DNA of 64,000 nt from Moritella sp. PE36. GTDB taxonomy: Bacteria > Pseudomonadota > Gammaproteobacteria > Enterobacterales > Moritellaceae. Position 1 is the stretch's first letter, and every line of letters begins with the position of its first letter. Location: contig NZ_ABCQ01000001.1 of assembly GCF_000170855.1 (NCBI RefSeq), positions 248,001 through 312,000 of the forward strand. Direction: 5' to 3'. Below, piece by piece: positions 25,137 to 53,968 of the stretch. The position numbers and the translations under genes were made by a program. The notes under the pieces were generated by a model. The model was given only the letters and a program-made list of their open reading frames with translations, had not been told where the DNA came from and made no database searches.

Positions 25137-25360
25137 CCCTAACCTAACACCATGCTAATACTGCAACAGACAACCACCAGCAAAACTAACAATCTTCAAA
25201 GTACAGGATACAACAAAGCCCCAACATATGTTGAGGCTTCATCACTTAAATATGGTGCCCGAGGACGGACTTGACCGTCACTCCTTTCGGAAGCGGATTT
25301 TAAATTCCTCGAGACACCTTTCAGTAATTATAAATCTTTGGATCCGGTTAGATTACTCGC
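25137..25360. repeat. Element boundary: right-end repeat, tRNA-Leu core, left-end repeat
   Basis: The left part (25137-25252) is the short form of the right-end repeat. From 25253 a partial tRNA-Leu 3' half (TGGTGCCCGAGGACGGACTT and on to GCGGATTTTAAAT) differs at several positions from the tRNA at 53884. From about 25310 the left-end repeat follows, related to those at 28810 and 31302. This copy is the most diverged of the three interior boundaries, hence probably the oldest. The 25029-25376 spacer contains nothing else besides the hairpin at 25099. Confidence 0.85.
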
Positions 25361-28450: not shown

Positions 28451-28890
28451 TGGACCGTAAAGTAGCGGAATCTCCCCCTAACCTATTCCCATGCTAATAC
28501 TGCCATCAATACCCACCAGCAAAACTAACAATCTTCAAAGTACATGACAGTGTTGGATCCAGTCTGATCCCCTTCCGCACAGATTCTGCACGTGAAAGTA
28601 CCGGATATGGACAGGGGCAAATTATCTAAGAGTAATAACGTGAGTTAACTAGAGAGTATTTTCAGGGATATAACGTAAGGAAAGAGAATCGAAGCTTTTC
28701 ATTGTGCCAGATACAACAAAGCCCCAGCGTTAGCTGAGGCTCTATTACTTAAATATGGTGCCCGAGGGCGGACTTGAACCGCCACTCCTTTCGGAAAAGG
28801 ATTTTGAATTCCTTGAGACGCCTTTGCTGTAGTGATAAATACTAGGATCTTGTTGGATATTCTTGTCCATTATTTGGGATTGTGTTGGAT
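28451..28890. repeat. Element boundary: right-end repeat, tRNA-Leu core, left-end repeat
   Basis: 28451-28755 is the long form of the right-end repeat (GGACCGTAAAGTA, later AGTACCGGATATGGACAGG and GGATATAACGTAAGGAAA). The tRNA-Leu core spans 28756-28809 and differs from the tRNA at 53884-53937 by one base (GGAAAAGG for GGAAGAGG). The left-end repeat follows (TCCTTGAGACGCCTTTGCTG, then ACTAGGATCTTGTTGGATAT), nearly identical to that at 31302. The 28891-29058 remainder of this spacer shows no gene. Confidence 0.9.
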
Positions 28891-30768: not shown

Positions 30769-31400
30769 TGTGTGTTACTTGTTATCTATCCCCTACGTGC
30801 TAATCACACACATGCCACAACCCCATATGAGACAGGCACTTTCAACGAAATCCAATTACGAAATAATAACGCAACAGTCTACACCATCAGTAAATCAACC
30901 GAATTACACATCGCAATCCCAAAGGACAAGACTAAGACCGGAAGAGGACCGTAAAGTACTGGAACTCTCCCGACCCTAATCCCATGCTAATACTGCAACC
31001 GACAACCACCCGCAAAACTAACAATCTTCAAAGTACAGGACAGCCTTGGATTTAGTGAGATTGCCTTGCGCACAGATTCTGCATGCGAAAGTACCGGATA
31101 TGGACAGGAGTACAATGTCAAGGGAGATAACGTGAGTTTATTGCTGAGTATTTTTAGGGATATGACTTAAAGGAAAATAACGTAAGCTTTTCATTGTATC
31201 AGATACAACAAAGCCCCAACTTTCGTTGAGGCTTCATGACTTAAATATGGTGCCCGAGGGCGGACTTGAACCGCCACTCCTTTCGGAAGAGGATTTTGAA
31301 TTCCTTGAGACGCCTTTACTGTAGTGATAGATACTAGGATCTTGTTGGATATTCTTGTCCATTATTTGGGATTGTATTGGATCCTTTTAGCCATGGATGC
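30769..31400. repeat. Element boundary: full right-end repeat, tRNA-Leu core (attL of the pipolin), left-end repeat
   Basis: 30769-31247 matches 53416-53883 along almost its whole length, including the TGTGTG/CACACA motif, CCAAAGGACA and GTACAGGACAGC. The tRNA core at 31248-31301 is identical over 54 bases to 53884-53937. From 31302 the left-end repeat follows with several GTTGGAT-like words (GATCTTGTTGGATATTC, TGTATTGGATCC), possible arm-type integrase sites. This marks the left end of the 22.6-kb pipolin. The rest of the gap to 31639 is AT-rich and should hold the promoter of the next gene. Confidence 0.92.
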
Positions 31401-34682: not shown

Positions 34683-36245
34683 TTAAGTAACTAATGCTCT
34701 CTTAATTGGGAGCGTAAGCCACTCTTTCTCAAGTTTCTTCAAAGGATAATCAAGAAAGCACTTGAAGTAAGTTCTTAACATCTCCTTATCATTACAGCTT
34801 TTAACAACTTCTAGAAGCCCCTCAGCATCTAAAAAATCTAGCTCATACTTCCCAGTGCCGGATTTTGCTTGCGTTAATAACGCCAAAGATTCATCAGTGA
34901 ATGACCCCGTTGTCCATAAAGAAAAACTAAGTTTTTTACGTTTCCACTCAGGATGTTCCAAGGCATATTTTCTAAGTGTTGGTACCCTTGTATGAAGCCA
35001 TCTCTTCACTTCATCATGTGACACCGTTCCGTTCGGTTGGTGTCCTTTACATTCAATGAACAATATTGTGCCAGTGTTTAATTCAGCAACAATATCTGAC
35101 TCAGCACTTAGCCCATCGCTAGTTTTGTAGATTTCATTCATTCTTACATTAAAAGTACGATAAGCTTTATCTACCACCGTAGCTGAAAAATACTCAAACA
35201 GGACACCTCTAAGATTACCAACAGCACCTTCTATCTTCCCGAGCTGATCAAATAACGTATTAAACCTCTCAGGCTCGATAATTATGGCTCGGGCAGCATT
35301 TTCTAATGTTTGAAGCAAGTTCGTTAAACCTTTAGCAACATCTTTACCAAATAAAGTTTCCACTGTTGCAGGCAATATTCCAGCTACTTTTGCTTGCTGA
35401 AACGCTTCAGGATGATAGTCGTTAGCAACAAACATTTGCATGCATCGACCTACCTTTGGAAGCCCCCTAAGAGTTCTACACTTCCTTAAAAAGGGCTGAA
35501 TCCCGTCTTCGCTGATCTTTTTATTCAATAAAATATCGCAGGCAAAAAAACCAGGTTTAAGTTTCGAGTTTTCATCTTTCCCCCGTTCTACTAAAGGCGA
35601 TATATATGATGGTCCGGCCATATCCCAAAGGGTTGTACTCACAACAGGAAGTTCATCACCATCTCTATCTTTGAAAATATTGTAGCTGACTAAACCTAGA
35701 TTTCTAGCCCACTGCGATACTGCACTAATCAAGAGTTTTTCAACTACCAGCCTAGCTCTTAAATCCAGTAAAATAAATTGAAGTTCCTGTTCGCATTGAG
35801 TCAAAATAATACAACGACCAAAGCCATCAATGTTCTTTATTGACAATATTTCATGCATCTCGAGACGCTCTAAAATCTTTTCAGGTGGGATATGTTTCTG
35901 CTGCCTAAATGGCGAACCACACGCAATCAAGAAATGATCGTAAGGCATGATACCATCACGCTCCTTTAGTGCCGCAATCGCATACCAATAAGCTGAATTT
36001 GTATCTTTAAAAGCCTTATACAAAGCACTCCAAAAAAAAGGAGAGCGATAATCTTTCTTCAAATAAATAAATTTAACGTTTCGAGGAAGCGGTAACCCCT
36101 CTAATCGATGAATATTCTTGCCTGTCCGGGAGACTCGTTTTCGAGCAGCAGCATAAGATAAATTATGCTTATCAACCAACTCCTGCACTAAATCCGAACT
36201 AAGACAAGGACCATTTTTCTTCAAAAACTCTTCCAATAAATTCAT
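34683..36245 (-). CDS. Putative PD-(D/E)XK-type nuclease with N-terminal winged helix
   Basis: 520-residue protein. The first 50 residues resemble a winged helix (LVQELVDKHNLSYAAARKRV). Near residue 400 it has SDIVAELNTGTILFIECKGH, an aspartate then ExK in beta strands, the hallmark of restriction-type PD-(D/E)XK nucleases. The middle is not recognised. ATG 36245 is the likely start; a GTG three codons earlier is possible. It is a single gene placed between two copies of a duplicated segment in the pipolin, so it looks like exchangeable cargo, plausibly restriction or abortive-infection defence. The family is not identified. Confidence 0.6.
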   Translation of the reverse strand: MNLLEEFLKKNGPCLSSDLVQELVDKHNLSYAAARKRVSRTGKNIHRLEGLPLPRNVKFIYLKKDYRSPFFWSALYKAFKDTNSAYWYAIAALKERDGIMPYDHFLIACGSPFRQQKHIPPEKILERLEMHEILSIKNIDGFGRCIILTQCEQELQFILLDLRARLVVEKLLISAVSQWARNLGLVSYNIFKDRDGDELPVVSTTLWDMAGPSYISPLVERGKDENSKLKPGFFACDILLNKKISEDGIQPFLRKCRTLRGLPKVGRCMQMFVANDYHPEAFQQAKVAGILPATVETLFGKDVAKGLTNLLQTLENAARAIIIEPERFNTLFDQLGKIEGAVGNLRGVLFEYFSATVVDKAYRTFNVRMNEIYKTSDGLSAESDIVAELNTGTILFIECKGHQPNGTVSHDEVKRWLHTRVPTLRKYALEHPEWKRKKLSFSLWTTGSFTDESLALLTQAKSGTGKYELDFLDAEGLLEVVKSCNDKEMLRTYFKCFLDYPLKKLEKEWLTLPIKRALVT

Positions 36246-36441
36246 AAATGTCACACTGCGCTATATATATTTCCATTTCATGGACAGTTAGCTTAAACAA
36301 ACACTTAGTTGACGATACCTTATAATTAAAGTGTTGGCGAGGTATGAAAAACAGAAGAATGACGGTTAGTGTCACAGTTATCATTTTTTCATAACAAAAT
36401 GATGGTTCAGCCCACTTATCAATCTAAAATCTATTTCATAT

Positions 36442-36526: not shown

Positions 36527-37129
36527 TTACTTATAACAATAAAACATCTCTAACATTCCGGCATCACCAACGCGGTCACGCACCGTATCAACCCAAGCAC
36601 CAAATTCATCCATGTACCACAGCTTATCAACGCCGAGTTGCGCACTAACATCATCCAACGACAATCCCAACGTTTCACCTTTAATTTTAGCTCTACGGCC
36701 TTTCTGGCTCAATAGCGTAATCATCTTCTCAATATCACCACCAGCAACCATCTTAGGATTCGCCAGTAACAAGTGACGAGAAGATGGGTATAGCTTACCG
36801 TTATAGAACACTGGCTTTGACTGACCTTTCAGTTGCTCGCGTACTTCAGTGTTATTACCCGACTTAAGCTTCCTCGCTAATGTAGTTTTAGCCATTCCCA
36901 GTGCTTTAGCAGCTTCACTAACACTGCTATATTTAACGCCATTAATTTCAACAGGTTTACTATGCACTTTACTCGGTCGTGATTCAGCACCTACAGCTTG
37001 TGCTAATGACCAATTGAATTTAGTTACCCGTTCATTAACTAATTTAGGTTCAATACCATAATGACGGGCAGCAGCAGAACGACTATCGTATTCAACACTA
37101 TCAACCATAAGTCGATTTTCAATATTCAT
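36527..37129 (-). CDS. NUMOD1-like repeat DNA-binding protein
   Basis: 200-residue protein with repeated modules of the form VDSVEYDSRSAAARHYGIEP (residues 9-28) and INGVKYSSVSEAAKALGMAK (61-80), plus a weaker third copy near 107-125. These match the NUMOD1/intron-encoded-nuclease repeat, a small helix-turn-helix DNA-binding unit. No nuclease motif is visible. It lies downstream of the RNase H-like and polymerase genes in the same direction and could regulate or bind element DNA. Its 3' end was duplicated on the far side of the nuclease gene. Confidence 0.65.
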   Translation of the reverse strand: MNIENRLMVDSVEYDSRSAAARHYGIEPKLVNERVTKFNWSLAQAVGAESRPSKVHSKPVEINGVKYSSVSEAAKALGMAKTTLARKLKSGNNTEVREQLKGQSKPVFYNGKLYPSSRHLLLANPKMVAGGDIEKMITLLSQKGRRAKIKGETLGLSLDDVSAQLGVDKLWYMDEFGAWVDTVRDRVGDAGMLEMFYCYK

Positions 37130-37226: not shown

Positions 37227-37913
37227 TTAGAATGGTAAGTCGTCTGTATGGGCTGCTTTAGGCTGTTTAACGCCCAGTGTTACCTTTGCTTTGATTCGCC
37301 CATATAATGTGAATACTGATTGCACCAGCTCAAGATTAGCCGGAGATTTACCAGCAGAGTTCAGCCAATTGTTGGCTTTCCAATTGGGTGCGAAATTATT
37401 CAAGGTATTACCGACACTCGCATTCAGCCCGATAATTTCAACGGTATCAGCACCCTGTTTAATATGATAATCAGCCAGCTTTAATGCCGCATAACCAAAC
37501 TCTAAATACATTTGCGCAGTTTTAGCACCAGTAGATGTTTCAATAATATGCGTATCGCAATCTAAACTCTTAATCGTTGAACCAAGACCACCAGTACCAA
37601 GCTTACAAGTTAAGGTGACAACTTTGGGCTGCTTAGGTGCGCTAACTTTAGCTAGATACGATAAGTCCTCTTTTGGTTTAGGTGGTAAATTAGTGTTACG
37701 ACCACGCTTTGGCTTGTTTCTTTTCTGTCGTGCGGTACGTTCTTTAGTTATCTGCTTAAGATATTTCTCAGCTTCTTCAAGAGTAAAAGCACCTTTATTA
37801 TCACCACCAGGTTTACCGATTGCGATAGCAGCACACTCAGCCCATGTAGTTACAATACGAGCTTCTTTATCGTTAATTGCAGCATAAAAATTATATTTTG
37901 GTTTTTTGGCCAT
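37227..37913 (-). CDS. Degenerate RNase HI-like protein with SSB-type C-terminal tail
   Basis: 228-residue protein. Residues 6-54 match the viroplasmin/RNase HI N-terminal hybrid-binding domain (KYNFYAAINDKEARIVTTWA, then EEAEKYL). A basic linker (60-72) follows. Residues 97-215 follow the RNase H fold, notably NWKANNWLNSAGKSPANLEL, which mirrors the handle/helix region of RNase HI. The catalytic carboxylates appear lost: the first strand reads VVTLTCKLGTGG, the helix reads AQMYLEFG, the next strand VEIIGLNASVG. The C-terminus TDDLPF is the tip by which SSB proteins recruit partners. It sits downstream of the PolB gene behind its own conserved promoter motif. A nucleic-acid-binding replication accessory is my best guess. 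Confidence 0.65.
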   Translation of the reverse strand: MAKKPKYNFYAAINDKEARIVTTWAECAAIAIGKPGGDNKGAFTLEEAEKYLKQITKERTARQKRNKPKRGRNTNLPPKPKEDLSYLAKVSAPKQPKVVTLTCKLGTGGLGSTIKSLDCDTHIIETSTGAKTAQMYLEFGYAALKLADYHIKQGADTVEIIGLNASVGNTLNNFAPNWKANNWLNSAGKSPANLELVQSVFTLYGRIKAKVTLGVKQPKAAHTDDLPF

Positions 37914-37980
37914 GATATTGACTCTCTATATTTGAAGTTAAAATTCGCTACGGAATGTAGCTATTAATTGGTATTTGAAA

Positions 37981-38025
37981 TGTGTGTGTTGATTGTTATT
38001 TATACCCCCACAGCCAAATCACACA
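37981..38025 (-). promoter_or_regulatory. Four-copy TGTGTG/CACACA motif, copy upstream of the RNase H-like gene
   Basis: Arms TGTGTG and CACACA 45 bp end to end around ATTTATACCCCCACAG. Related copies: 30769-30812, 44176-44220 and 53416-53458. On the minus strand GGGGGTATAAAT could provide a -10 element. It lies about 67 bp upstream of the RNase H-like start. Confidence 0.65.
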
Positions 38026-38031
38026 GGGAAA

Positions 38032-38056
38032 GAAGCCCTTATGCGATAAGGGCTTC
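38032..38056 (-). terminator. Terminator-like hairpin after the polymerase gene
   Basis: Perfect 11-bp stem GAAGCCCTTAT / ATAAGGGCTTC with a 3-base loop, followed on the minus strand by TTTCCC. Placed between the end of the PolB gene and the next promoter motif. Confidence 0.75.
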
Positions 38057-38085
38057 AATAGATAGGTATTTACGAAAAATATTAT

Positions 38086-40837: not shown

Positions 40838-41272
40838 TTACTTTTGGTATTCAGCCCATTGAATGGCTGAGACTTTTTTGTCATCACTGATGTCGATTAG
40901 TACATCAGTAATAGCATCTGAAAGACCTGAAATATCCGAGTATTGCTCTTTATCAAAAATGCAAAGTGGTCGCTCATTCAAACCGATCACAAGTAAATGA
41001 CCTGTTTTTGGTGAAACAAATGTATTTTTAATAATACGCACGTCGATAAAACCGCCATTCTCAAGCACAATACTATAATCTTTCTGTGGTTTAACGCGCT
41101 GTTTAGCTTTTTCAAACAGCTCGTGTGACTTTTCGCTGTTATCAAAAATAATTTTACGGCACTGAGCATCAAGAATTAAAGTAGCATCTTCAAAATGAAC
41201 AACCGTAGTACCAGCACTAGCGTTTAAGATACCGTTTGATGTACGAATAAATAGTGGTTTAATAGTAGTCAT
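40838..41272 (-). CDS. Hypothetical protein upstream of piPolB
   Basis: 144-residue acidic, beta-rich protein without membrane span or recognisable motif (IRTSNGILNASAGTTVVHFE, then LLVIGLNERPLCIF). It precedes the polymerase gene by 73 bp in the same direction and is probably co-transcribed, so it may be a replication accessory. I do not recognise a family. Confidence 0.65.
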   Translation of the reverse strand: MTTIKPLFIRTSNGILNASAGTTVVHFEDATLILDAQCRKIIFDNSEKSHELFEKAKQRVKPQKDYSIVLENGGFIDVRIIKNTFVSPKTGHLLVIGLNERPLCIFDKEQYSDISGLSDAITDVLIDISDDKKVSAIQWAEYQK

Positions 41273-41780: not shown

Positions 41781-42950
41781 TTAATCCAAATTAAATGCGT
41801 GATGATGACCAGATACAAGCGACAATGCTGTATCTTGGCTAGCTTGAGTAAGCTGCTTATTATCATGAAAAGCATATCGCTCAGTAGTAGTGACACTTTG
41901 ATGAAATAGGTTTTGCTGAACCAATCTCGCATCACCAGTCAGCTGTAATTGACGACTTGCGTACGTTCTACGTAAATCATGGATAACAACATGCTCATAA
42001 CAGCCTGATGCTAATGCAACATGGTCACGTATTTTGGCATGGCAATCTTTAGGTGCTGAAATATGCTGGTTATCTTTCAAGGCAGATGGAAATAGCCAAT
42101 GGTTCCAAGATAAAGCAGCGCATTCAATTAAGAGCTTTTTTGCTGGCTCATTAATAGCAATGCGATAGGCGCGGCCATTCTTTGTTTGCGGTAAAGACAG
42201 AAGAGAGAAGTCATTATTAATCATTATTTTTTCAATGCTAATAGCATTGCCAATACGCAATCCCAGAAAGAGACTCACCAATAACGCTTTAGAATGAAAT
42301 GAATCAATCTCAATCGCTTTATCGATGTAATGGTATAACTCGACATCACTTAATACGCGGTCACGTATATTAGCTTCAGGCCATTTTTTAATACCTTTAC
42401 AGGGATTACGGTGCAGCAACTCAAGATCAACGGCAGTAGAAAAAATACGAGATAATAATGATAAGTGGCGGTTAACGGTGGAGCCTTTAACCTCTAAAGC
42501 AAGTTGAGTTAATATCTGCGTGATATCGATGCGGCTAACATCACTTAGAGTACGACGCGCAATATCACCAGCAAGGCGACGCCAGCGTGTTTTAACACTT
42601 TTAATATCACGATTGTGCGCTTCCATCATCGGCAACACATAATCAATAAAGAAGTCACCAACTAATATCGTTGAGGCTTTATTGTAAAAACCTTGTTCAA
42701 TCTGAGATAAACGAGCATTAGCAAGTTTTTCAAATGCTGAAATGCTCATATCAGGCCAGTGTCCTATCACTTGGTTAGTACGCTGACCTTTGAATGACTT
42801 AGATATACTTAGCGATACAGTGGTCGGATAAAATGTGACTTTTTGATGACGCGCACCAAGACGACGCTTAACAATAGGTTTTTCACCGATGTTAGGTCGA
42901 GGATGCGCTATAAAAGCATCAGCAGTAAAAAGGATAGTGTTAGCAGACAA
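41781..42950 (-). CDS. Tyrosine recombinase (integrase) 1
   Basis: 389-residue site-specific recombinase. Core-binding domain at about 100-185 and catalytic domain with R in LFLGLRIGNA, the H-x-x-R box HDLRRTYAS, a second-box histidine region LFHQSVTTTE and the tyrosine in RYAFHD. I start at a TTG (42950) because GGAG lies six bases upstream; a TTG at 42983 without signal is the alternative. It forms an operon with the Xis-like gene. E. coli pipolins also carry tyrosine recombinases near piPolB. Its likely target is tRNA-Leu, but the other integrase at 47.6 kb is equally placed. Confidence 0.9.
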   Translation of the reverse strand: MSANTILFTADAFIAHPRPNIGEKPIVKRRLGARHQKVTFYPTTVSLSISKSFKGQRTNQVIGHWPDMSISAFEKLANARLSQIEQGFYNKASTILVGDFFIDYVLPMMEAHNRDIKSVKTRWRRLAGDIARRTLSDVSRIDITQILTQLALEVKGSTVNRHLSLLSRIFSTAVDLELLHRNPCKGIKKWPEANIRDRVLSDVELYHYIDKAIEIDSFHSKALLVSLFLGLRIGNAISIEKIMINNDFSLLSLPQTKNGRAYRIAINEPAKKLLIECAALSWNHWLFPSALKDNQHISAPKDCHAKIRDHVALASGCYEHVVIHDLRRTYASRQLQLTGDARLVQQNLFHQSVTTTERYAFHDNKQLTQASQDTALSLVSGHHHAFNLD

Positions 42951-43010
42951 AGTAAACTCCGTTACATAATTAAATACATGCAACGGATTTTATAGGAGGG
43001 AACGGATTGC

Positions 43011-53415: not shown

Positions 53416-53883
53416 TGCGTGTGCTTGTTATCTATCCCCTACGCGCTTATGACACACATGCCACAAACCTATATGGCATAGGCACTTCCCGCATTAGTTC
53501 ATTACGAAAAAATAACGCAAAGACCTTCACCAGCAATAACCCCCCCGAATTACGCATACCAATTCCAAAGGACAGGACGCGGACCGTAAAGACCGGAATT
53601 CCACTCAACCTAATCCCATGCTAATACTGCCACTGACAACCACCAGTAAAACTAACAATCTTCAAAGTACAGGACGGTGTTGGATCTAATGAGATTGCCT
53701 TGCGCACAGATTCTGCATGCGAAAGTACCGGATATGGACAGGAGCAAATTATCTAAGAGTAATAACGTGAGTTTATTAGAGAATATTTTTAAGGGATATA
53801 ACGTAAGGAAAAATGAGGTAAGCTTTTGATTGTGCTAGATACAACAAAGCCCCAACTTTCGTTGAGGCTCTATTACTTAAATA
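53416..53883. repeat. Right-end repeat of the pipolin (full copy)
   Basis: Matches 30769-31247 along its length and 28451-28755 over its right two thirds. It begins with the fourth TGTGTG/CACACA motif (53416-53458) and contains GTACAGGACGGTGTTGGATC, GAAAGTACCGGATATGGACA and a hairpin CAAAGCCCCAAC / GTTGAGGCT before the tRNA. GTTGGAT words here and in the left end may be integrase arm sites. Confidence 0.88.
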
Positions 53884-53968
53884 TGGTGCCCGAGGGCGGA
53901 CTTGAACCGCCACTCCTTTCGGAAGAGGATTTTGAATCCACCGCGTCTACCGATTTCACCACTCGGGC
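53884..53968 (-). tRNA. tRNA-Leu, anticodon CAA (pipolin attR side)
   Basis: 85-nt class II tRNA: acceptor GCCCGAG pairs with CTCGGGC, genome-encoded CCA, D-arm GTGAAATCGGTAGACGC, anticodon loop TTCAAAA giving CAA, long variable arm with TTCCGAAAGGAG, T-arm GGCGG-TTCAAGT-CCGCC. It reads UUG codons. The 3' half (53884-53937) is the 54-bp sequence duplicated at 31248-31301, so this half came with the element. The anticodon stem GTGGA/TCCTC contains one U-U mismatch (28-42). It is the integration site of the stacked elements. Confidence 0.95.

What the first reader, a model, noticed from the sequence alone, without database searches (positions are those of the whole stretch)
37227..37913. Pseudo-RNase HI with hybrid-binding domain and SSB-like tail next to piPolB
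The protein combines an RNase HI-type hybrid-binding N-domain, an RNase H fold recognisable from NWKANNWLNSAGKS, loss of the catalytic carboxylates at all three positions I can place, and the C-terminus TDDLPF characteristic of SSB proteins. A dead RNase H that binds hybrids or ssDNA and recruits SSB partners would be an unusual replication helper for a primer-independent polymerase.
Basis: partly seen in the sequence, partly recalled or inferred. Interest (0 to 1): 0.8.

Follow-up and report, generated by a model that had tools for sequence, protein, structure and literature searches.

The report
Dead RNase H beside self-priming polymerase
Next to a DNA polymerase thought to start DNA without a primer, a group of mobile elements in Vibrio-like bacteria keeps a gene for a protein that has an RNA-DNA-hybrid-binding part, an RNase H part that has lost its cutting site, and an end like the tail with which the cell's single-strand DNA-binding protein recruits replication proteins, so it looks like an accessory replication adaptor.

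Summary
Window 37227-37913 (-) encodes 228 aa: an RNase H1-type hybrid-binding domain (HBD), a basic linker, an RNase H fold without its catalytic carboxylates, and the end TDDLPF. The fold is supported by profile comparison with active HBD-RNase HI (hhalign 99.1%, E 4.4e-19) and by a family-only AlphaFold2 model (pLDDT 79; VIA Z about 9-11). E. coli D10 and D70 map to K104 and L163, E48 to M135/Y136; the H124/D134 region is missing. In the 5.2-Mb assembly only host SSB and this gene match the pattern for DD-x-PF-stop. Relatives lie directly downstream of piPolB in Vibrionaceae; carriers form one piPolB clade (11 carriers, 49 others without). All 10 RNase-H-like copies end in PF after at least one acid; two elements have only the HBD. 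Selection is purifying (dN/dS 0.28), although 3 of 10 copies are broken. Best reading: a pipolin-encoded nucleic-acid-binding adaptor that uses an SSB-tail mimic to bring host SSB-interacting proteins to piPolB replication intermediates. Binding and recruitment are inferred, not shown.

The parts
37227..37913 (-). HBD / dead-RNase-H / SSB-tail protein, 228 aa
37752..37892 (-). hybrid-binding domain (residues 8-54), pLDDT about 90; W24 and K40 at the places of human W43 and K59 (my alignment)
37629..37745 (-). basic linker (residues 57-95, net charge +10); K69, R70 and R72 invariant in the 6 rows of A7
37272..37628 (-). RNase H-like domain without catalytic residues (residues 96-214)
37230..37250 (-). 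SSB-C-terminus-like tail HTDDLPF (residues 222-228)
37914..38085 (-). intergenic leader with a GCCCTT...AAGGGC hairpin and a TGGGGATATA-like block shared with relatives
   Evidence: weak covariation; no Rfam match
36527..37129 (-). next gene, 200 aa, I-TevI DNA-binding/NUMOD modules; mostly follows the dead RNase H in the relatives too
40838..41272 (-). 144-aa protein of unknown function just upstream of piPolB, conserved in the clade
41781..42983 (-). tyrosine recombinase of the element
31239..31301 (.). 63-bp direct repeat of the tRNA-Leu end (putative att); with 53875-53937 it bounds an element of about 22.7 kb holding the gene
53875..53937 (.). 63-bp direct repeat overlapping tRNA-Leu (53884-53968) (putative att)

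Best explanation
It is an accessory replication adaptor of one clade of pipolins. Shown: the protein is built like an RNase HI of the HBD-linker-RNase H type that lost its cutting site and its last helix, and has a C-terminus like that of host SSB; it travels with piPolB. Inferred: the HBD and the catalytically dead RNase H domain hold it on RNA-DNA hybrids, duplex or template/nascent-strand junctions at the element's replication intermediates without cutting them, and the flexible tail docks into the pocket that host SSB-interacting proteins (PriA, RecQ, RecO, DNA pol III chi, RNase HI and others; list recalled) keep for SSB. It would thus work like an SSB as a recruiting hub, but with a hybrid-binding instead of an OB-fold anchor.
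For: Fold and descent: hhalign of the family against active HBD-RNase HI, 99.1%, E 4.4e-19 over 201 columns from HBD through RNase H; family-only AF2 model, VIA Z 11.2 (foamy virus RNase H), 10.7 (human RNase H1), about 9.5 (E. coli). Dead: no catalytic acid in 8 of 8 rows at three positions, fourth region absent. Tail: 10 of 10 RNase-H-like copies end in PF with at least one acid just before it (one of them behind a stop), at 32-82% identity to the window copy for the full-length ones; of 3241 other ORFs in the first 66 sources only 2 end in PF; two hits to the strict pattern genome-wide, the other being SSB. Linkage: next gene downstream of piPolB in the carriers; carriers monophyletic on the piPolB tree, support 0.955. 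Constraint: dN/dS window-G007 0.28 overall, 0.20 HBD, 0.22 dead domain. Precedent: a mobile-element DNA polymerase paired with a small ssDNA-binding protein (CcPol-MP; passages of PMC10061031); RNase HI is itself bound by the SSB C-terminus (passages of PMC11253446); W43A or KK59/60AA compromise HBD hybrid binding (passages of PMC10639055 and PMC6868509).
Against: No binding or interaction data. 3 of 10 RNase-H-like copies are broken (nonsense in G009 and G899, frameshift in G841), so the gene is dispensable in some elements. Two of 12 carriers have only the HBD and no tail. The closest ortholog (G007) has TDILPF with a single acid, and the 14 tail codons of that pair show dN/dS 0.81 (tiny sample). 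Pfam does not recognise the HBD above cut-off in the window copy, nor in 5 of 8 relatives, 4 of which have no PF01693 match at all. F58 and K60 of the human HBD are not kept (N39 and G41; positions by my own alignment). No match beside 49 of 60 piPolBs, so piPolB as such does not need it.
Confidence: 0.5

Rival explanations
1. Hybrid shield: the protein is a dominant-negative RNase H that covers R-loops or RNA-DNA hybrids of the element and keeps the host's active HBD-RNase HI off, so that R-loops can start or prime replication; the tail lures RNase HI or PriA.
For: Same domain order as the active host enzyme present in the same genome (264 aa); cells without RNase HI start replication independently of oriC, presumably at R-loops (abstract and passages of PMC4631800); catalytically dead RNase H1 binds R-loops in human cells and is suggested to stabilise them (passages of PMC6868509).
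Against: piPolB should not need an RNA primer; no R-loop-forming locus was identified; no direct evidence of hybrid persistence.
Confidence: 0.2
2. Self-assembling coat: because RNase HI binds the SSB C-terminus, the fused tail docks on a neighbouring molecule's own RNase H-like domain, so the protein polymerises along nucleic acid, like a DNA-packing or SSB-type coat.
For: RNase HI binds the SSB C-terminus (PMC11253446 passages); tail and RNase H-like domain are present or absent together (10 carriers with both, 2 with neither).
Against: The SSB-binding pocket was not mapped on this domain; AlphaFold leaves the tail unplaced (pLDDT about 47 in a monomer run).
Confidence: 0.12
3. Regulator: the HBD binds structured RNA of the leader between piPolB and the gene and controls expression of the cassette; the RNase H fold is only a scaffold.
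For: Hairpin and sequence blocks shared by the 8 leaders aligned; HBDs can also bind dsRNA (recalled); HBD-only forms exist.
Against: Covariation is weak (5 of 17 pairs with two-sided changes, energy -4 kcal/mol); it does not explain the SSB tail.
Confidence: 0.1
4. Decaying relic of a captured host RNase HI with no function.
For: 3 of 10 copies broken, catalytic site lost.
Against: dN/dS 0.28 with both domains at 0.20-0.22; intact in 6 elements down to 32% identity; tail kept in about four sequence lineages; mosaic exchange of HBDs and C-halves.
Confidence: 0.05

Closest known systems
HBD-containing RNase HI of the same hosts (PF01693 + PF00075; 'viroplasmin family' is a recalled name; P0003)
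   Same: Domain order HBD-linker-RNase H, RNase H fold, 24% identity, hhalign E 4.4e-19
   Different: Host enzyme keeps D100/E140/D166/D232 and the last helix region and ends ..MPSG; the pipolin protein lost all of these, ends in an SSB-like tail and lies in a mobile element
Bacterial SSB (PF00436)
   Same: C-terminal tip, DDLPF versus DDDIPF; the only two matches to the strict pattern in the genome
   Different: No SSB/OB domain found; HBD and RNase H fold instead
CcPol-MP / PolA-SSB pairs of SCC elements (PMC10061031, passages)
   Same: Mobile-element DNA polymerase able to start without primer when paired with a small nucleic-acid-binding protein; most predicted contacts there run through the partner's variable C-tail
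   Different: A-family polymerase with an OB-fold partner; [quoted passage not shown]
Catalytically dead RNase H1 (D210N) used as R-loop probe (PMC6868509, PMC10639055, passages)
   Same: HBD plus inactive RNase H
   Different: Engineered single mutation; here natural, with the last helix missing and an SSB-like tail

Membership tests
RNase HI (enzyme) | RNase H fold | tested here: met
   VIA Z 9.0 to 11.2 in the first 34 rows, 112-120 residues, rmsd 2.4-3.6 A; topology
RNase HI (enzyme) | D10-E48-D70-D134 metal-binding carboxylates | tested here: not met
   K104, M135/Y136, L163, fourth region absent; no acid in 8 of 8 rows at these columns; E at the D10 column in two further copies, G009 and G841
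RNase HI (enzyme) | curated family score (NCBIfam ribonuclease HI, Pfam RNase_H) | tested here: not met
   window 18 bits against 160 (NF001236); no PF00075 match in the window copy; G1054 12.9 bits against 25.8
RNase HI (enzyme) | cleavage of RNA in hybrids | not testable with these tools
   needs an assay
RNase H1 hybrid-binding domain (PF01693) | profile match above the curated cut-off | tested here: inconclusive
   window copy 14.5 bits against 21; of 8 relatives 3 above (39.1, 40.1, 52.8 bits), 1 just below (20.2), 4 without a match at E 1; 1qhk E 5.9e-4 by family profile
RNase H1 hybrid-binding domain (PF01693) | hybrid-contacting W43, K59, K60 | tested here: inconclusive
   W in 7 of 10 rows, K at the K59 place in 7 of 10, the K60 place is G in 8 of 10; residues from passages of PMC6868509 and PMC10639055
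SSB | OB-fold ssDNA-binding domain | tested here: not met
   Pfam finds no SSB domain; model is HBD plus RNase H
SSB | acidic C-terminal tip ending in Pro-Phe | tested here: met
   TDDLPF; 10 of 10 RNase-H-like copies end in PF, 9 of 10 with two or more acids in the five residues before PF
pipolin | piPolB plus att-like repeats at a tRNA, usually a tyrosine recombinase | tested here: met
   definition from passages of PMC7385651. The polymerase is 36% identical to one found on the chromosome of 292 of 5426 E. coli genomes; primer independence itself is not testable here

The most novel reading that the evidence does not exclude
The first dedicated accessory factor of a primer-independent B-family replicase: an SSB-like hub made without an OB fold, in which an RNase HI was turned into a non-cutting hybrid/junction binder and given the host SSB's recruiting tail, so that a mobile element anchors the host's SSB-dependent replication and repair proteins to its own self-primed DNA.
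Probability: 0.35. Interest if true: 0.85.

Novelty: new variant of a known kind. Interest (0 to 1): 0.72.

Why it matters
How pipolins replicate, and which proteins work with piPolB, is open as far as I know; a paper I read in passages says piPolBs prime without an SSB-like partner (PMC10061031). A conserved, co-inherited neighbour that combines a hybrid-binding domain, a dead RNase H and an SSB-tail mimic gives a concrete, testable partner. It would also be a natural version of the 'dead RNase H' R-loop probe, and a case of molecular mimicry of the SSB hub by a mobile element.

Tried and rejected
Wider distribution: the window protein against plasmids, phages and IMG/VR gave nothing (two-row profile in IMG/VR); V. 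mytili protein against plasmids nothing; four-row profile against IMG/VR nothing; piPolB profile in IMG/VR nothing and window piPolB in phages nothing. Genome contigs by peptide patterns of the window copy gave nothing, although relatives were there, found later through piPolB, so these pattern scans miss diverged members. 394 genomes of the order at E 1e-8 gave 3, all of the genus; 369 of the class at E 1e-6 gave only the window's genome. Of 329 genomes of V. mytili's family, 44 match at E 1e-6; eight are carriers (G759, G761, G762 HBD-only, G763, G841, G899, G972, G1054). G760 (V. anguillarum, HBD-only) falls below that threshold. Of the other hits and those of the window's genus I read 36 loci (21, 15): all are chromosomal RNase HI with the catalytic motifs in place; hits without a fetched locus were not read.

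First AF2 run with 3 rows was poor (pLDDT 62); the second, with 11 family rows and no active RNase HI, is the one used. The HBD was not searched separately as a structure. Foldseek TM-scores by query length are only 0.35-0.41 in the 50 rows shown, because one domain aligns. BFVD's best matches are viral RNase H and 'viroplasmin' proteins. Leader as an RNA family: weak, not pursued; the G009 row was on the wrong strand, put right. In the HBD profile the V. anguillarum row was a wrong-frame translation; A6 has the right frame, and searched with both profiles. YN00 failed for two of four dN/dS pairs. Rejected: active RNase H, simple SSB paralog (no SSB domain), relic without constraint.

Literature: 14 papers of the library hold 'piPolB' or 'pipolin' (listing); two were searched for 'RNase' and 'ribonuclease' with 0 occurrences. 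Two further papers that I asked for by identifier, the founding piPolB paper and what I recalled as a later pipolin paper, are not held, so I cannot say that the protein is unreported; the listings of searches showed no report of it.

Full report
What is there. Window 37227-37913 on the minus strand is an ATG-started ORF of 228 aa. Upstream of piPolB are a 144-aa gene and the recombinase; downstream of the finding comes a 200-aa gene with I-TevI/NUMOD DNA-binding modules. The whole lies between 63-bp exact direct repeats at 31239-31301 and at the tRNA-Leu, 53875-53937; further partial tRNA repeats at 28735 (62 bp) and 25244 (21 bp) suggest other insertions. The window belongs to a genus that is alone in its family, with 11 genomes held; I suspect Moritella from recall, no tool names it.

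The two domains. The window's HBD matches Pfam PF01693 only weakly (E 0.042, below cut-off). Of 8 relatives scanned, 3 pass the cut-off (G899 E 8.8e-10, G841 E 4.3e-10, V. anguillarum HBD-only gene E 4.7e-14), one is just below and four show no match. A profile of six members has the yeast RNase HI HBD (1qhk) as its best PDB match, E 5.9e-4, and RNase HI/H1 chains below it (42 chains at E up to 1, nearly all RNase H). Pfam's RNase_H model matches only G1054, below cut-off; NCBIfam RNase HI models match the window, V. mytili and G1054 copies at E 0.0016 to 8e-5, far below their cut-offs. Profile against profile, six members and seven active HBD-RNase HI proteins align over 201 columns from the first residue to beta-5 (99.1%, E 4.4e-19). 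AlphaFold2 on an alignment of family members only gives pLDDT 79 (about 90 in the HBD, 75-93 by tens through residues 101-210, under 50 in 68-79 and 216-225) and the RNase H order of strands and helices without the last helix. Second-look alignment gives Z 11.2 to the foamy virus RNase H domain, 10.7 to human RNase H1 and 9.5 to E. coli RNase HI (1rnh), model 96-218 against E. coli 2-123; Foldseek agrees (best E 5.7e-5).

The active site is gone. In the family alignment the D10 column reads K, K, K, Y, H, V, K, C in the 8 rows that cover it, the D70 column L, L, M, I, L, L, L, V, and no acid stands at M135 or Y136 in any row. Against this: E138, two columns on, is acidic in 5 of 8 rows, the residue after the D70 column is Asp in 5 of 8, and two copies outside those rows have E at the D10 column (G009, G841); none of these is conserved across the family. 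The proteins end before H124 and D134. The host genome has an intact enzyme of the same build (264 aa; D100/E140/D166/D232 invariant in A8).

The tail. Host SSB ends ADFDDDIPF. The pattern for D-D-hydrophobic-P-F-stop matches twice in the 5.2-Mb assembly, in SSB and here; reversed control 0. A looser pattern (which lets TGG through and loses its first base) gives 3-6 matches per genome in eight genomes, with 1-6 in the controls, so it is not specific. All ten RNase-H-like copies end in PF: TDDLPF (window), TDILPF (G007), TDDLPF (G009), VDDDAPF (V. mytili, G972, G1054), IDNDAPF (V. splendidus), DTHDAPF (P. sanguinicancri), DTDDVPF (G841) and VDNDAPF (G899, behind a stop). Several share a C-half, so these are about four independent lineages. 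Of 3246 ORFs of 60 aa or more in the first 66 sources (window and L031-L095), 7 end in PF and 5 of these are the family. The two HBD-only genes have no such tail.

Where it occurs. piPolB searches gave 52 named loci and those. From 68 sources with a piPolB match, 65 gave 350 aa or more (L042, L093 and L095 dropped as short); five that I took for duplicates were removed, leaving 60 in the tree. The 11 carriers (window, G007, G009, P. sanguinicancri, V. mytili, V. anguillarum, V. splendidus, Photobacterium sp. Ph5, G972, G899, G1054) form one clade with support 0.955; none of the other 49 has a match at E 0.01. Five of those 49 have under 700 bases after piPolB (L073, L075, L081, L086, L089), so absence is hardly tested there. 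A twelfth carrier, G841, was left out of the tree because only part of its piPolB was held. The gene is the next one of size downstream of piPolB, and where the stretch is held the I-TevI/NUMOD gene mostly follows, whole or in pieces. P. sanguinicancri's copy is split between two contigs. G1054 has a different N-terminal domain with a C-half nearly that of V. mytili, and G899/G841 have canonical HBDs: the gene looks like a mosaic with exchangeable HBDs.

Constraint and decay. Window against G007: dN 0.095, dS 0.336, ratio 0.28 (NG86); HBD 0.20, linker 0.44, dead domain 0.22, 14-codon tail 0.81; piPolB 0.14. Wider pairs: 0.21 and 0.22 at saturated dS (above 2; YN00 failed), and 0.28-0.32 for V. 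mytili against G972 at dS 1.3-1.5. Three of ten copies are broken, and the G009 element is decaying generally (piPolB with an in-frame stop, recombinase split by what looks like a transposase pair).

How it may work. Shown: relation to RNase HI, loss of the active site, tail, linkage to piPolB, constraint. Inferred: (1) HBD and dead domain keep the protein on hybrids or junctions of the element; W24 and K40 stand where human W43 and K59 do, residues whose change compromises hybrid binding (passages of PMC6868509 and PMC10639055); (2) the tail enlists host proteins that read the SSB tip. In E. coli RNase HI itself reads that tip (passages of PMC11253446); deleting the terminal Phe of SSB abolishes and changing its Pro weakens such docking (passages of PMC10164576). 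The rival shield and self-assembly readings use the same facts. HBD-only genes in two elements suggest that nucleic-acid binding is the minimal function.

Verdict. The finding is real and goes beyond one genome: a conserved pseudo-RNase HI with an SSB-like end belongs to the piPolB cassette of a pipolin clade found in Vibrionaceae and the window's genus. Filed as neither RNase HI enzyme nor SSB; it may work like an SSB hub. Whether it is already in print could not be settled, because the founding piPolB paper is not held.

Noticed in passing
window 53863-53937, 31239-31301, 28735-28796, 25244-25264: Copies of the tRNA-Leu end in a row: 63-bp and 62-bp exact repeats and a shorter one, which looks like several elements inserted in tandem at one tRNA.
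   Followed up: partly
window 40838-41272: A 144-aa protein without family match lies just upstream of piPolB and is conserved in the clade, with weaker relatives in Marinomonas and Colwellia loci (L049, L053); a second candidate piPolB partner.
   Followed up: no
window 37914-38085: Leader between piPolB and the gene: GCCCTT/AAGGGC hairpin and TGGGGATATA-like block shared with relatives; weak covariation, no Rfam match.
   Followed up: partly
L048 5893-6147: Photobacterium sp. Ph5 has a second HBD-only gene, between the excisionase-like gene and the 167-aa gene.
   Followed up: no
L032 and L033 (G009), L034 (G008): G009 carries two different piPolBs about 19 kb apart; beside the second type (about 1050 aa) lies a remnant of the I-TevI/NUMOD gene but no match to the dead RNase H.
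   Followed up: no
L132 6936-7772: N-terminal domain unlike the other HBDs joined to a C-half nearly identical to V. mytili: domain exchange within the cassette.
   Followed up: partly
window 34683-36254: 523-aa protein in the same element without a Pfam or PHROG match at E below 0.1; no relative in the other 65 sources compared.
   Followed up: no
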